Assembly: GCA_029931885.1 (NCBI GenBank)
Contig: JAOZRJ010000026.1
Span: 1-11,199, forward strand
Origin: Candidatus Omnitrophota bacterium
GTDB taxonomy: Bacteria > Omnitrophota > Koll11 > Zapsychrales > Aceulaceae
Reading direction: 5' to 3'
DNA: 11,199 bases
In this document: one piece after another, positions 1,463-8,322 of the stretch
Position numbering within the stretch: the stretch's first letter is position 1
How the letters are laid out: each line of letters begins with the position of its first letter
The notes under the pieces: model-generated
Told to the model about the DNA's origin: nothing
Seen by the model: the letters and a program-made list of their open reading frames with translations, nothing else
Database searches by the model: none
Translations under genes and position numbers: made by a program

Positions 1463-1863
1463 TGGTGGAGGTGCGGGGAATCGAACCCCGGTCCTTGGGT
1501 TACGCAATAAAAGCCTCTACATGTTTAGTTTGTTTTTTAAAATCTCATCCCAATCGCTCTAAACAAACAAACATTACTGGGACCAGCCTTTAAAATCTCA
1601 CTCCGCTGATAAAGGCACTCAACAAAGCCAGCCTACTAAATGTCCTTTCTCAAAGCCCGCAGGCAAAACCTTGAAAAAGGGCCTTACTTTATTTAAGCAA
1701 GGACTGGTTCGCTAGCGAAAACCGGATTAACGATTTCGTTAGCTTGCGCAATGAGTTTATCATTTGCATTTATTTTTGCTCGGATTATTTTACGAGGCCA
1801 ACCAAGCGTCCTCGACATGCCACTAGTACCACGATCAAACTCAAGTCGAGACCAATCACCCCC
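1463..1863 (-). ncRNA. ssrA: Transfer-messenger RNA (tmRNA)
   Basis: Both ends can be fixed from the tRNA-like domain. The 5' GGGGGTG (1863-1857) pairs over 7 bp with CACCTCC near the 3' end, followed by discriminator A and an encoded CCA ending at 1463. The third pair of the acceptor stem is G-U, the identity element for alanyl-tRNA synthetase. The T arm CGGGG-TTCGATT-CCCCG is perfect. TTGGCCTCGTAAAA and AAAAATAAATGCAAATGAT match the region before and at the tag start of E. coli tmRNA, which sets the resume codon. The length is 401 bases. With SmpB this RNA frees ribosomes stalled on broken mRNAs and marks the unfinished protein for proteolysis. smpB lies 64 bases upstream on the same strand. 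A promoter with a perfect TATAAT stands 11 bases before the mature 5' end. Confidence 0.96.
1693..1767 (-). other. tmRNA tag-peptide reading frame (24 codons plus stop)
   Basis: The resume codon is GCA at 1767-1765, placed by alignment of ATAAAT-GCA-AAT-GAT with the E. coli ATAGTC-GCA-AAC-GAC; the conserved U at -5 and A at -4 are present. The encoded tag begins ANDKLIAQANEI and ends SEPVLA, then stops at TAA (1695-1693). With the alanine from charged tmRNA the added peptide is 25 residues. The E. coli tag encodes 10 residues and ends ALAA; here the end is PVLA. Confidence 0.9.
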
Positions 1864-1927: not shown

Positions 1928-2389
1928 TTAGTTGCGCGGCGGATGCGTGCGGACAATACGATCAATTTGTCTTTTAATATCGCGCTTCTTGATATCTTCT
2001 CTCTTATCATAAAGCTTCTTACCCTTAACAAGGCCAATCTCAATTTTAACAAGATTTCGGTTATTAAAATAAATCTTTGTCGGAACAAGTGCCAAACCTT
2101 TTTGCGCCATGCGCGCGCCAATCTTTTTTATCTCCTTTTTATGCAAAAGAAGTTTTCGCTTGCGGTCAGACTCCAAATTTAAATAACTCGCCTGAACATA
2201 AGGATCAATGTAGAGATTATGCAAAAACATCTCTTCTCCATCTATGCGGGCAAAACTATCTTTAAAATTCACATTCCCGCTTCGAACAGACTTAACTTCG
2301 CTGCCGGCTAACGTAATGCCGCATTCCCATCTCTCAACAATGAAGTAATCACGAAAAGCCTTTTTGTTTGTAGAAATCGTTGCACCCAT
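1928..2389 (-). CDS. smpB: SsrA-binding protein SmpB
   Basis: This 153-residue protein has the normal SmpB length. The family signatures appear in order: TNKKAFRDYFIVERWECGI (7-25), LAGSEVKSVRSGNVNFKDSF (27-46), the RKRKLLLHKKEI segment (76-87), GLALVPTKIYF (98-108), GLVKGKKLYDKRE (118-130), and a basic C-terminal tail (about 131-153) that enters the empty mRNA channel of a stalled ribosome. The protein binds the tRNA-like domain of tmRNA and places it in the A site. The tmRNA gene follows 64 bases downstream, a common pairing. The start ATG at 2389 lies 15 bases after the stop of the AEC permease gene; AAGGA overlapping that stop is a rather distant Shine-Dalgarno (about 12 bases), so coupling to the permease is likely. 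Confidence 0.97.
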   Translation of the reverse strand: MGATISTNKKAFRDYFIVERWECGITLAGSEVKSVRSGNVNFKDSFARIDGEEMFLHNLYIDPYVQASYLNLESDRKRKLLLHKKEIKKIGARMAQKGLALVPTKIYFNNRNLVKIEIGLVKGKKLYDKREDIKKRDIKRQIDRIVRTHPPRN

Positions 2390-4943: not shown

Positions 4944-6470
4944 TTAATCTTCAACCGCAGGAAATTTTACAAAAAACCGAACCCCTTTACCAGTCTTGTC
5001 CTGAATATTTTCAACCGAAACATCTCCACCATTTTCACAAATCAAATCTTTACATAGCGAAAGTCCAATACCGGTGCCATCCTCACGACCAGAGACAAAG
5101 GGATCAAAAATAACTTTTATTTCTTCCTTTGAAAGATGTGATCCCGAATTCTCAATAATTACAAAAACCTCATTCTTTGTGCTGTCAAATCCAGAAAAAA
5201 TCTTTACATAACGTTTTTCTTCTTTAGGCAATCTAACAAAAACATCCAAAGCATTAATAATAATATTCATAAACGTTTCCTGAATATGAATAGCATCCGC
5301 ATGAACAAGGGGAAGTTTTTTCTCTGGGAAAAAATCCCAATTCACACGCTTAATGCGAAGCTCATCTCTCACAAGATTTAAGGCTCGATCCATGCAAAGG
5401 TTTAAATCCACTCTCTTCTTATCCATCTCTCGATGACGCATCAAATCCATAAGATTATTCAGCATCTCTTTAAGATAAGACGACTGCTCAAAAATTAAAT
5501 CCACAGATTTGTAATAAGGGTCTTCTTTCTTCATGCCATTTTTCATAAACTTAACAAGTCCATGCATAGCTGTAATCGGCTGGCAAATCTGATGAAGAAT
5601 TCCGGCTGATAAAGACGCAAAAATCGAAGCCCTTCCCATGTCAACCAATTTTAATTTTACACTTTCAACATTCTGTTTTGCAACCACAACTTCTTCATCC
5701 TTTTGACGCATCTCGTTTCCCATTTTCCGCATCTCTTCTAAAAAAGTAACATTATGATATTTAATAAGGGCATACGACATCATAATAATTGCCAAAAACA
5801 AAGATACCGGGCCAAATGGATAAATGCTAATGCCATAATTATTTAAGACTGTAACATTGCTTAAAACAGTCAAAATAAAGCTTACCATGACAAACTCTAA
5901 TTTTCTTCGATACTGAAGATCGCTTTTTCTGCGCTGAGGTGATCTTAATGATTTTAAATAATGAAACAAAATCATTAAAAACGCATAAGCAAAACACACA
6001 ACGCTAAAAGCTACAAAGATTAATTGTGCACCTTTAGCCTTCGGAGAAAATCCCCAGGGATATTCTTCAATCCCGATAAAAAAAGGATCAAGCCATGTTT
6101 TTAAAAACAAGACAAAAACTCCAAAATAAGCAATCCAAAGGAAAAATCTCTTGTATCGATAGCGATTGGTAACAACAATGGAAAGATGCAGTAATGTTAC
6201 AGGAACTAAAACAATTCCTAAAAAAACAATACGTCCCCAAAAAAACGTAACAGGATCCACCCAGGCGTTTAAGCTCAGCGCAAAACCCAAAAACCATAAG
6301 GCCGAACTCATGTAAAAATAAGAAATTGACCGATGAAAACTTAAACGGCTCCCAATGCCTAAAATAAACATGCTAAAGAATAATGCAATGCTAAAGAAGA
6401 TAAACGGAAGCAGAGATGAGATATTAAAATAATAATATGGTGATTGGAGTATGGATGCTAAATTTATCAT
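4944..6470 (-). CDS. 7TM-sensor histidine kinase
   Basis: The 508-residue protein starts with seven predicted membrane helices (about 15-40, 47-68, 75-100, 107-126, 148-172, 191-212, 216-237), resembling the 7TM N-terminal domain of some sensor kinases. A short linker helix (about 242-278) leads to the H box SAGILHQICQPITA (phosphoacceptor His293) and to the ATPase domain: N box with Asn402 and Asn406, a degenerate G1 box IENSGSHLS (440-447), F box IFDPFV (454-459) and G2 box GTGIGLSL (465-472). It should autophosphorylate His293 and pass the phosphate to a response regulator, but no regulator gene is in the window. The H box has Gln after His, as in HQ..QP-type kinases. No Shine-Dalgarno precedes the ATG at 6470; a TAA lies directly before it, so a longer ATG-started form is impossible. 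It ends the pyrE operon. Confidence 0.9.
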   Translation of the reverse strand: MINLASILQSPYYYFNISSLLPFIFFSIALFFSMFILGIGSRLSFHRSISYFYMSSALWFLGFALSLNAWVDPVTFFWGRIVFLGIVLVPVTLLHLSIVVTNRYRYKRFFLWIAYFGVFVLFLKTWLDPFFIGIEEYPWGFSPKAKGAQLIFVAFSVVCFAYAFLMILFHYLKSLRSPQRRKSDLQYRRKLEFVMVSFILTVLSNVTVLNNYGISIYPFGPVSLFLAIIMMSYALIKYHNVTFLEEMRKMGNEMRQKDEEVVVAKQNVESVKLKLVDMGRASIFASLSAGILHQICQPITAMHGLVKFMKNGMKKEDPYYKSVDLIFEQSSYLKEMLNNLMDLMRHREMDKKRVDLNLCMDRALNLVRDELRIKRVNWDFFPEKKLPLVHADAIHIQETFMNIIINALDVFVRLPKEEKRYVKIFSGFDSTKNEVFVIIENSGSHLSKEEIKVIFDPFVSGREDGTGIGLSLCKDLICENGGDVSVENIQDKTGKGVRFFVKFPAVED

Positions 6471-6539: not shown

Positions 6540-6983
6540 TTAATCTGTAACCATAATATTTGCATCATCATAAACATTAATATCATAAGCGTCAGTATAT
6601 CCGGCATTAACTTCCAAAACATAACGAACAAAATTATCAGGTCCGTATGAAGGGCATTCTTTATTTAAACAAGGTGCTGCATTTTTTTTAATGTAAATAA
6701 CCCTTCTGTTCTCATCAAGCCAAATCATATCCAGCGGGATCAATGTGTTTTTCATCCAAAACTTTGCTTGGACTAACTGCGGAAAAATAAACAACATTCC
6801 ATGATTTCTTTCCAGAGAATCTCGATATTGAAGCCCTTGAGATAATTCTTCCGACGTTTGAGCTATTTCAACTGAAACACACCTTTGACCAAAACAAACT
6901 TCTGGATCTTTATCTTTTCGACATCCTGAAGCGCAAAACAAAACCAAACAAATTAATACCATAAAAATACTTTTTCTCATCAT
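6540..6983 (-). CDS. DUF192 lipoprotein
   Basis: The 147-residue protein opens with a lipoprotein signal: MMRK, a hydrophobic stretch (5-17) and the lipobox ASGC with acceptor Cys21. The DUF192 domain follows: GLQYRDSL (50-57), GMLFIF (62-67), FWMKNTLIPLDMIWLDENRRV (75-95) and YVLEVNAGYT (121-130). Two CX4C pairs (Cys30/Cys35 and Cys105/Cys110) may form disulfides in the periplasm. The family has a small beta-barrel fold and no firm function. The start is either of two adjacent ATGs (6983 or 6980); AAGGAG inside the end of the upstream peptidase gene lies 9 bases before the first. Only one base separates it from the M48 stop codon, so the genes are co-transcribed and probably coupled. Confidence 0.9.
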   Translation of the reverse strand: MMRKSIFMVLICLVLFCASGCRKDKDPEVCFGQRCVSVEIAQTSEELSQGLQYRDSLERNHGMLFIFPQLVQAKFWMKNTLIPLDMIWLDENRRVIYIKKNAAPCLNKECPSYGPDNFVRYVLEVNAGYTDAYDINVYDDANIMVTD

Positions 6984-6984
6984 G

Positions 6985-7776
6985 CTAACGAGCTCCTTCC
7001 TCTTCTGTTAGGCGAATGTAATCGCGAAACGTCATCTTTCCTGAAATCGCCTGACTGACATTTGAAATTCTTTGCGATGTGTACGGATGTGTTCGCCAAT
7101 AACTAAATGGGCGAATAGGTTTTTTGGCATTAATCTTTTGAAGCTTTTCAAGAAATACAATCATCTCTTCGGGGTCATACCCTGCCTCTTCCATGTATTG
7201 TACCGCTACTCGATCTGCCAAAAATTCATCCTCACGGCTGTACCCGGTAATGATAGAGCCAAAAGCCAAATTAATCCCCGGAGACATATTTTGATTTCCA
7301 CTCGTGATAGCCAGCACTTGAAGAAGTGTGTATCCATAAACTGCCTGCATTCGCTTCATAGCGTGCCTGGCTGTAATGTGTCCGAACTCATGGGCAATGA
7401 CTCCAGCAAGTTGATCATCGTTATCAACTTCATCAAGGAGTCCCTTGTAAACATAAATGTATCCACCGGGAAGCGCAAAGGCATTAACCTCGTCTTCGTC
7501 AATTATCTGAACTGTGTAAAAAATCTCTGTGCGGTCACACACCTTTTCTATGCGCTTCGCAATATTCGTTACACGTTCATTAATATCAATGTCCGTGTTA
7601 ATTTCATACTCTTGATCAATGTAATGGGCAATAGAGTTTCCAACCGCAATTTCCTTTTCTACTCCAAAAATAAGCGTCTCCTGTTTCTGTGTCGCCAAAT
7701 TGTATTCCGTGGCGCATCCCGCAAGATAGACTGACATTAAAATTACTAAAATTTTTACACCGAACTTCTTTAACAT
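6985..7776 (-). other. M48 lipoprotein peptidase moiety with possible internal start
   Basis: If translation begins at Met183 of the fusion (ATG 7776-7774), the product is a normal secreted lipoprotein of 263 residues. Its n-region MLKKFGVK is basic, the h-region ILVILMSVY is hydrophobic, and LAGC is a canonical lipobox. Met177 (7794-7792) is an alternative start with a weak ribosome-site-like GGTGGG about 8 bases before it; no good Shine-Dalgarno precedes Met183. The same codons serve as the C-terminal tail of Maf, so the two proteins share this stretch in one frame. Confidence 0.6.
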
Positions 7777-8322
7777 CCGGCACAACTTTGCCATCGGTAA
7801 ACCCACCACATTAAAATAACACCCTTCAATTCTTTTAATAAAAAACGCGCCTCGCCCCTCAATGTCAAACCCTCCGGCTTTTCCCGCAGGAGGCGTATGG
7901 CGATAGTAGCTATTTATCTCCTGATCAGTCAACGGATTCATGTAAATTTTTGTTTTCTCATAACTGACCATTTGCTTTTTTGTTTTAGCGTCAATAACTG
8001 CCAGGCCTGAATAAACCCAATGCGGATTTCGAGAAAGCATTTTTAATGTTTTCTTGGCTTCCTTTAAATTCCGCGGCTTACCAATGATTTTTTTATTCTT
8101 AGCGTAAACAAGCGTATCGGACCCGATGACTACGCCTGAAGCGATGCGACCGGCGACATCTTGCGCCTTGAGCAAAGAATTTTTTTTGACCAAAGCTGCA
8201 CATCCGCGCGAAGCGTCAGAACTTTCTTGTATTTTGCTTTTGATAACACGAAAAGAAATCCCAAGCCGTTTTAATAACCGCTTTCTATGGGATGACTGAG
8301 AGGCTAAAATAATTTTAGTCAT
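6985..8322 (-). CDS. Maf nucleotide pyrophosphatase fused in frame to an M48 lipoprotein metalloprotease
   Basis: One uninterrupted frame of 445 codons joins two complete proteins. Residues 1 to about 190 are Maf: ILASQSSHRKRLL (5-17), GSDTLV with catalytic Asp69 (67-72), GKP (81-83), HWVYSGLAVID (101-111), GKAGGFDIEGRGAFFIKRIEG (147-167) and NVVGLP (171-176). Maf removes non-canonical NTPs in the cytoplasm. Residues 183-445 are an M48 peptidase with a signal peptide and lipobox (Cys203), the zinc motif HEFGH (His311, Glu312, His315), and the third ligand Glu366 in EDEFLAD. Related BepA/LoiP proteins act at the periplasmic side of the outer membrane. A single chain would place Maf and the protease in different compartments, so internal initiation or a recent loss of the maf stop codon is likely. 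The ATG lies 3 bases after the pyrE stop with no Shine-Dalgarno. Confidence 0.92.
   Translation of the reverse strand: MTKIILASQSSHRKRLLKRLGISFRVIKSKIQESSDASRGCAALVKKNSLLKAQDVAGRIASGVVIGSDTLVYAKNKKIIGKPRNLKEAKKTLKMLSRNPHWVYSGLAVIDAKTKKQMVSYEKTKIYMNPLTDQEINSYYRHTPPAGKAGGFDIEGRGAFFIKRIEGCYFNVVGLPMAKLCRMLKKFGVKILVILMSVYLAGCATEYNLATQKQETLIFGVEKEIAVGNSIAHYIDQEYEINTDIDINERVTNIAKRIEKVCDRTEIFYTVQIIDEDEVNAFALPGGYIYVYKGLLDEVDNDDQLAGVIAHEFGHITARHAMKRMQAVYGYTLLQVLAITSGNQNMSPGINLAFGSIITGYSREDEFLADRVAVQYMEEAGYDPEEMIVFLEKLQKINAKKPIRPFSYWRTHPYTSQRISNVSQAISGKMTFRDYIRLTEEEGAR

What the first reader, a model, noticed from the sequence alone, without database searches (positions are those of the whole stretch)
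6985..8322. Cytoplasmic Maf pyrophosphatase fused in frame to a secreted M48 lipoprotein protease
One frame encodes a full Maf domain and a full M48 peptidase. The junction (residues 183-203) is a complete lipoprotein signal peptide with lipobox LAGC. If made as one chain, the signal would act as an internal anchor with Maf inside and the protease outside the inner membrane, and signal peptidase II could cut them apart. If Met177 or Met183 is used as an internal start, one gene gives two proteins sharing a stretch of codons. The domains and signal are seen directly; the processing route is inferred.
Basis: partly seen in the sequence, partly recalled or inferred. Interest (0 to 1): 0.7.

Follow-up and report, generated by a model that had tools for sequence, protein, structure and literature searches.

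The report
Cytoplasmic enzyme fused before signal peptide
In a group of uncultured bacteria, one gene joins an enzyme that should work inside the cell to a protease that should work outside it, with an export-and-cut signal exactly at the join, which suggests that the cell makes one long protein and lets its export machinery split it in two.

Summary
The fusion is real. Window 8322→6985 (minus strand) encodes one 445-aa frame: a complete Maf pyrophosphatase domain (3-187), a lipoprotein-type signal ending LAG-Cys203, and an M48 protease (251-424). It is not a missed stop: at least 106 of 384 sampled genomes of the same phylum (Omnitrophota) carry it (three cut at contig ends, one with a stop at the junction). 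In 109 distinct fused genes the lipobox Cys is invariant and both active sites are kept. Other genomes have maf and m48 side by side as separate genes in different frames (32 distinct loci, 15 with ATGA overlap). The state has switched repeatedly (11 changes on a tree, at least 7 forced).

Met177 and Met183 are probably not conserved internal starts, though an internal start in this one gene is not excluded. Best reading: one chain, Maf inside, its last helix serving as the signal's n-region, signal peptidase II releasing an ordinary M48 lipoprotein. Cleavage is inferred, not shown.

New here: Maf is also fused through signal peptides to DUF192 (20 protein clusters) and DsbD (7 clusters), mostly with signal-peptidase-I-like sites. 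Ten searches of the held paper library found no report of it.

The parts
6985..8322 (-). maf-m48 fusion gene, 445 aa
   Evidence: one open frame; Pfam Maf and Peptidase_M48
7762..8316 (-). Maf domain, residues 3-187
   Evidence: PF02545, 179.4 bits; S10, R13, E33, K52, D69, K82 present
7717..7794 (-). junction, residues 177-202: last Maf helix doubling as n-region, then hydrophobic core
   Evidence: alignments of 109 fused genes
7714..7716 (-). codon of Cys203, predicted lipidation and signal peptidase II site
   Evidence: Cys in 109 of 109 fused genes
7792..7794 (-). codon of Met177, possible but poorly conserved internal start
   Evidence: ATG in 16 of 109
7774..7776 (-). codon of Met183, a common Maf residue, not a conserved start as such
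   Evidence: ATG in 79 of 109 fused; Met in 25 of 32 unfused split-locus Mafs
7051..7572 (-). M48 peptidase domain, residues 251-424, with HEFGH (311-315) and Glu366
   Evidence: PF01435, 119.2 bits; conservation
6540..6983 (-). next gene, DUF192 lipoprotein-like protein; in other genomes its family is itself fused to Maf
   Evidence: PF02643
8326..8880 (-). preceding gene, pyrE-like orotate phosphoribosyltransferase
   Evidence: TIGR00336

Best explanation
A two-enzyme precursor split by the export pathway. Shown by sequence: maf and m48 form one open frame in which the end of Maf runs straight into a lipoprotein-type signal, with no separate n-region, so that Maf's last helix (MLKKFGV) stands where the basic n-region should be. 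Inferred: the ribosome makes one chain; the hydrophobic stretch engages Sec with the Maf domain held in the cytoplasm; M48 is exported; Lgt lipidates Cys203 and signal peptidase II (LspA) cuts before it. The products are an ordinary M48 lipoprotein, with the same mature start as in most species with separate genes, and a Maf enzyme carrying the spent signal as a short C-terminal membrane tail. The fusion would then be nearly silent for M48 and would at most tether Maf to the inner membrane and fix its ratio to the protease, which would explain why fused and split states interchange and why DUF192 or DsbD can stand in M48's place.
For: Fusion in at least 106 of 384 genomes. In 109 distinct fused genes Cys203 109, Gly202 107; Maf and M48 catalytic residues each in at least 107. 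Last charged residue to Cys: median 16, range 11-24. Fused Maf ends (177-190) are more basic (mean net +3.5) than Mafs of split loci (+2.4, n 32; p 2e-6, not corrected for kinship) and of other phyla (+0.05, n 40). Mature start C-x-T/S-E-Y/F-N alike in fused and most split genes. LspA in 39 of 40 fused genomes tested; in 39 of those 40 the fused gene is the only Maf match. 6 of 109 have no ATG, GTG or TTG at codons 172-189. Synonymous diversity at 176-189 is 0.94-0.97 of expectation, gene mean 0.91, so no hidden start signal shows. Maf-signal-DUF192 and Maf-signal-DsbD families exist.
Against: No protein-level data: no cleavage, topology or single-chain product has been seen. Internal starts are possible in most single genes, the window's included (before Met177 a weak Shine-Dalgarno-like stretch, -5.4 kcal/mol). 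The maf starts lack strong Shine-Dalgarno sites too (17% of 104 at or below -5), so their absence at the junction says little. L143, within a fused clade, has a stop at codon 192 and an ATG beyond it, so separate translation seems to work there. Two split M48s (L211, L224) lack the lipobox, so lipidation is not always needed. No trained signal-peptide predictor was available.
Confidence: 0.66

Rival explanations
1. Nested genes: Maf is read through, and M48 is made separately from an in-frame internal start near codon 177 or 183, so that one frame gives a (perhaps useless or degraded) long product and a normal pre-lipoprotein.
For: 82 of 109 fused genes have an ATG and 103 of 109 an ATG, GTG or TTG at codons 172-189; from Met177 or Met183 the window would give a standard lipoprotein signal; some single genes have strong Shine-Dalgarno-like pairing before codon 183 (L114, L138 at -12.1; L021, L108 at -9.2).
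Against: No start codon at one place is conserved; Met183 is as common in unfused Mafs; 6 of 109 have no start codon at 172-189; junction ATGs pair no better than other internal ATGs (11% of 110 against 16% of 911 at or below -5), while 52% of 31 split m48 starts do; synonymous diversity is not reduced.
Confidence: 0.2
2. Uncut signal-anchor protein: the hydrophobic stretch stays as a membrane anchor joining Maf inside to M48 outside as one working two-domain enzyme.
For: One frame, both active sites kept; no cleavage data.
Against: Invariant lipobox Cys and short core, and LspA present in 39 of 40; fused and split genes interchange on the tree, which a needed link would hardly allow; in the DUF192 and DsbD fusions the junction looks like other kinds of cleavable signal.
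Confidence: 0.12
3. Assembly or sequencing artefact: a lost stop codon or indel.
For: The window's own genome is not held and no reads were seen; split relatives exist.
Against: The same fusion in at least 106 of 384 genomes from many assemblies and in all 120 listed database relatives.
Confidence: 0.01

Closest known systems
Bradyrhizobium FbcH, cytochrome b / cytochrome c1 polyprotein cut at an internal signal by signal peptidase (recalled; searches found no text on it)
   Same: two proteins from one gene, split at an internal signal sequence
   Different: there the first part is a multi-pass membrane protein and the cut is by signal peptidase I (recalled); here the first part is a soluble enzyme and the site is a lipobox
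ASMTL: Maf fused to a methyltransferase domain (passage of PMC3899018)
   Same: Maf as N-terminal domain of a fusion
   Different: partner is a predicted methyltransferase, not an exported protein behind a signal peptide (that no signal lies between is recalled)
M48 proteases BepA and LoiP
   Same: related M48 domain
   Different: scores far below the equivalog cut-offs (BepA 108.6 of 570 bits, LoiP 77.9 of 365); no Maf there (recalled)
Adjacent maf and m48 genes of other Omnitrophota
   Same: same two genes in the same order; mostly the same mature lipoprotein start
   Different: stop and frame shift between them, and a separate n-region on m48

Membership tests
Maf nucleotide pyrophosphatase family | PF02545 / TIGR00172 above cut-off | tested here: met
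   179.4 bits, cut-off 27; TIGR00172 161.5 bits, cut-off 117.15
Maf nucleotide pyrophosphatase family | S-R-E-K-D-K signature (PMC3899018 passage) | tested here: met
   all six in the window, each in at least 107 of 109 fused genes
Maf nucleotide pyrophosphatase family | pyrophosphatase activity | not testable with these tools
   needs an assay
M48 metallopeptidase family | PF01435 above cut-off, HExxH and downstream Glu | tested here: met
   119.2 bits, cut-off 20.3; H311, E312, H315 109 of 109, E366 108 of 109
Bacterial lipoprotein | basic n-region, short hydrophobic core, lipobox Cys | tested here: met
   by sequence features, no trained predictor
Bacterial lipoprotein | signal peptide at the start of the chain | tested here: not met
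   as encoded, the signal lies behind a whole Maf domain
Bacterial lipoprotein | host has LspA | tested here: met
   39 of 40 fused genomes tested, of 106; window's own genome not held; Lgt not tested
Bacterial lipoprotein | lipidation and cleavage at Cys203 | not testable with these tools
   needs expression, globomycin, mass spectrometry
Signal-peptidase-processed polyprotein | one frame, two complete domains, signal-type junction | tested here: met
   sequence level only
Signal-peptidase-processed polyprotein | two mature products shown | not testable with these tools
   no protein data

The most novel reading that the evidence does not exclude
Omnitrophota use signal peptidases to mature polyproteins: the cytoplasmic Maf enzyme is repeatedly placed in front of the signal peptide of an exported protein (M48 lipoprotein, DUF192 protein, DsbD), its last helix serving as n-region, so that one translation event yields a membrane-tailed cytoplasmic enzyme and an envelope protein. 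To my knowledge it would be the first conserved natural family in which signal peptidase II acts on an internal signal behind a folded cytoplasmic enzyme.
Probability: 0.55. Interest if true: 0.75.

Novelty: new variant of a known kind. Interest (0 to 1): 0.62.

Why it matters
Signal peptides are usually sought only at the start of a protein (established practice, recalled). At least 106 of 384 sampled genomes of a phylum carry one behind a 190-residue enzyme. If the chain is made whole, export and lipoprotein maturation tolerate a large folded cytoplasmic passenger, and nature supplies ready constructs (three partners, two kinds of cut site, fused and split forms) to test how Sec, Lgt and the signal peptidases read internal signals, and whether a housekeeping enzyme gains anything from the membrane. 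It also warns that an annotation such as 'septum formation protein Maf' (source names) can hide an exported protease.

Tried and rejected
Artefact: rejected by recurrence. Met183 as a conserved internal start: rejected as a rule, since unfused Mafs have it as often. Shine-Dalgarno strength: weak evidence, since the maf starts are weak too. Single origin of the fusion: the Maf tree needs 13 changes between fused and not fused (outgroup left out; at least 3 forced by starred branches), the Maf+M48 tree 11 (at least 7 forced). L143 was labelled fused and split; L186 (cut at a contig end) was dropped, and L187 has under half of the columns. Both are quick trees without bootstrap. Which state is ancestral was not settled. 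Constant neighbourhood: not so; among fused loci with long flanks pyrE lies upstream in 21 of 37 and DUF192 downstream in 12 of 20 (a first count with short flanks is not usable). A general habit of internal lipoprotein signals: the filter found one other candidate (L033) among 221 ORFs, not followed. Long Maf frames in genomes without the M48 fusion: of nine frames of 251-922 aa, eight were read; seven are stand-alone Mafs with open frame upstream, one (G033) is Maf-DsbD; G091 (251 aa) was not read. Maf-like matches in giant frames: two of three were fetched in part (L240, L241) and not resolved. AlphaFold2 (mean pLDDT 81.5, pTM 0.55, residues 193-203 below 50) gives two domains matching solved Maf and M48 folds but no reliable relative placement. 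Lgt and a trained signal-peptide predictor were not tried. Literature: ten searches listed no paper on this fusion; PMC3899018 and PMC10066038 were seen as passages, all others as search listings with abstract starts.

Full report
What is there. The reading frame is on the minus strand, 8322→6985, 445 aa, ATG start, no internal stop. It holds a complete Maf domain (3-187) and an M48 domain (251-424). By sequence the nearest solved relatives are the M48 peptidase 3c37 and B. subtilis Maf 1ex2 and 4heb; an AlphaFold2 model (69 sequences) matches the same folds. Between the domains lies RMLKKFGVKILVILMSVYLAG-C203: basic stretch, hydrophobic core, lipobox. The Maf signature named in PMC3899018 (passages) is present as S10, R13, E33, K52, D69, K82; the M48 motif is HEFGH (311-315) with Glu366.

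It is a conserved gene. All 120 listed relatives, of 2,894 matches, carry both Pfam domains (P0107 is a partial record). The closest named ones are Candidatus Aceula and other Omnitrophota (75% identity to L001, Ca. Aceula lacicola), so I place the window in that phylum; its own genome is not held. With the genome of L001 as centre, 384 genomes of its phylum (drawn evenly from a larger group) were searched: 106 carry the fused gene, counted from a list that ends at about E 6e-74, so at least 106. Three of these are cut at contig ends (G138, G292, G373) and one (G372, L143) has a stop at codon 192. After removing duplicates I compared 109 distinct fused genes, the window, L143 and the cut L186 included. 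Cys203 is present in 109, Gly202 in 107; the residue after Cys is S, A or T in 98. Among the 120 listed database proteins 119 fit a Gly/Ala/Ser-Cys pattern before the (E)YN motif and the last, P0050, has Gly-Cys by eye.

The split state. 34 loci (32 distinct) carry maf and m48 side by side as separate genes. In all 32 the genes are in different frames; in 15 the m48 ATG overlaps the maf stop as ATGA. There Maf ends a median of 16 residues from position 177, about where the hydrophobic core starts in fused genes, and m48 has its own start and n-region. The mature lipoprotein begins alike in fused and most split genes. Exceptions: L211 and L224 have signals without a lipobox, ending AHA and SYA before EFN; L032 and L187 were not resolved. 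On the Maf tree the state changes 13 times (at least 3 forced), on a tree of Maf plus M48 without the junction 11 times (at least 7 forced). The two states have interchanged repeatedly; the direction is not settled. L143 lies among fused genes but has a stop at codon 192 followed by a new ATG: a likely recent fission, or an assembly error.

One chain or two starts? Codon 183 is ATG in 79 of 109 fused genes, but Met is as common there in Mafs that are not fused (25 of 32 split, 5 of 8 Maf-only Omnitrophota, 13 of 40 from other phyla), so it reflects the Maf helix. Codon 177 is ATG in 16 of 109. 27 of 109 have no ATG at 172-189 and 6 (L020, L160, L165, L176, L181, L182) no ATG, GTG or TTG; in those six the nearest upstream start codons lie at 128-148 or before, inside Maf. 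Junction ATGs show no more Shine-Dalgarno-like pairing than other internal ATGs (11% of 110 against 16% of 911 at or below -5 kcal/mol), whereas 52% of 31 split m48 starts do (the best of the possible ATGs was taken there, which favours that class). Against leaning on this: the maf starts themselves are weak (17% of 104), and a few fused genes do pair strongly before codon 183 (L114 and L138 -12.1, L021 and L108 -9.2). Synonymous codon diversity over 176-189 is not lowered (0.94-0.97 against a gene mean of 0.91, s.d. 0.11). Together this favours one chain for the family; it does not exclude an internal start in single genes, the window's included.

The Maf end as n-region. In fused genes the last Maf helix stands where the n-region should be. 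Net charge of 177-190 is +3.5 on average in fused genes, +2.4 in split ones, +0.05 in other phyla (p 2e-6 fused against split, not corrected for kinship). From the last charged residue to Cys there are 11-24 residues, median 16, short for a permanent anchor. The distance from Pro176 to Cys203 varies between 24 and 40, 27 being commonest (43 of 109).

The cell can probably do the cut. LspA is found in 39 of 40 fused genomes tested, of 106; the miss, G352, is a 0.9-Mb assembly. In 39 of the same 40 the fused gene gave the only Maf match; G310 has further weak matches in a 1788-aa frame. So Maf itself is not spare. The window also encodes LptF/LptG-type permeases, in line with an outer membrane.

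The same Maf with other exported partners. In L027 and L030 Maf is fused to DUF192, the family that follows m48 in the window; a pyrE-like gene precedes and a kinase-like gene follows, as in the window (both neighbours judged by eye). Their genomes hold no further match to the window protein. A search with the L027 protein shows 20 Maf-DUF192 clusters among the best 120 listed of 7,674 matches, down to 50% identity. Of 19 read (P0137 was not fetched), 2 (P0138, P0200) have a lipobox-like SGC and 17 a signal-peptidase-I-like end, judged by eye. In the 278 genomes without the M48 fusion, 206 have a Maf match. Nine frames there are 251-922 aa long, giant frames apart; of eight read, seven are stand-alone and one, G033, is Maf fused through a signal to DsbD. 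Seven clusters of Maf-DsbD exist. So three kinds of exported partner follow directly after the last Maf helix. One search also lists Maf fused to families that I recall as cytoplasmic (PF00294; PF05958, named by a source as an rRNA methyltransferase), so Maf is a ready fusion partner in general, which tempers the claim that the signal itself drives fusion.

How it most likely works. One chain; Sec takes the internal signal with Maf held inside; M48 is exported, lipidated at Cys203 and released by LspA; Maf keeps the spent signal as a tail. The mature protease is then the same as from most split genes, which would explain why the state can switch so often. All steps after translation are inferred, and translation as one chain is itself supported only by comparison.

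Novelty. Polyproteins cut at an internal signal are known in bacteria (FbcH, recalled). Ten searches of the held library listed no report of this fusion or of a signal-peptidase-II case; most subscription papers are not in it. I rate it a new variant of a known kind.

Noticed in passing
L027:6001-6987, L030:6001-6987; P0121-P0139, P0200: Maf fused in frame to DUF192 through a signal peptide; mostly signal-peptidase-I-like ends, two with a lipobox-like Cys.
   Followed up: partly
L234:1980-4733 (G033); P0241-P0247: Maf fused through a signal peptide to a DsbD-like protein (DsbD_N, DsbD_TM, thioredoxin), 896-969 aa, seven clusters.
   Followed up: partly
L143 (G372): Gene of a fused clade with an in-frame stop at codon 192 and a new ATG beyond it: recent split or assembly error.
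   Followed up: partly
L211, L224: Split m48 genes whose signal has no lipobox Cys and looks like a signal-peptidase-I signal.
   Followed up: no
G010:C20 (8375-aa frame), G083:C110 (3508 aa), G310:C166 (1788 aa): Weak Maf (PF02545) matches inside very long open frames; nature of these proteins unknown.
   Followed up: no
G244:C2:120085-120471: A weak LspA-family match lies in a stop-free frame of 57,756 aa, a giant gene or an artefact.
   Followed up: no
window 1463-1863 (-) and 1928-2389 (-): tmRNA gene directly beside smpB.
   Followed up: no
window 4944-6470 (-): Histidine kinase with a 7TM N-terminal region (HisKA_7TM) next to the operon; a kinase-like gene also follows maf-DUF192 in L027 and L030 (by eye).
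   Followed up: no
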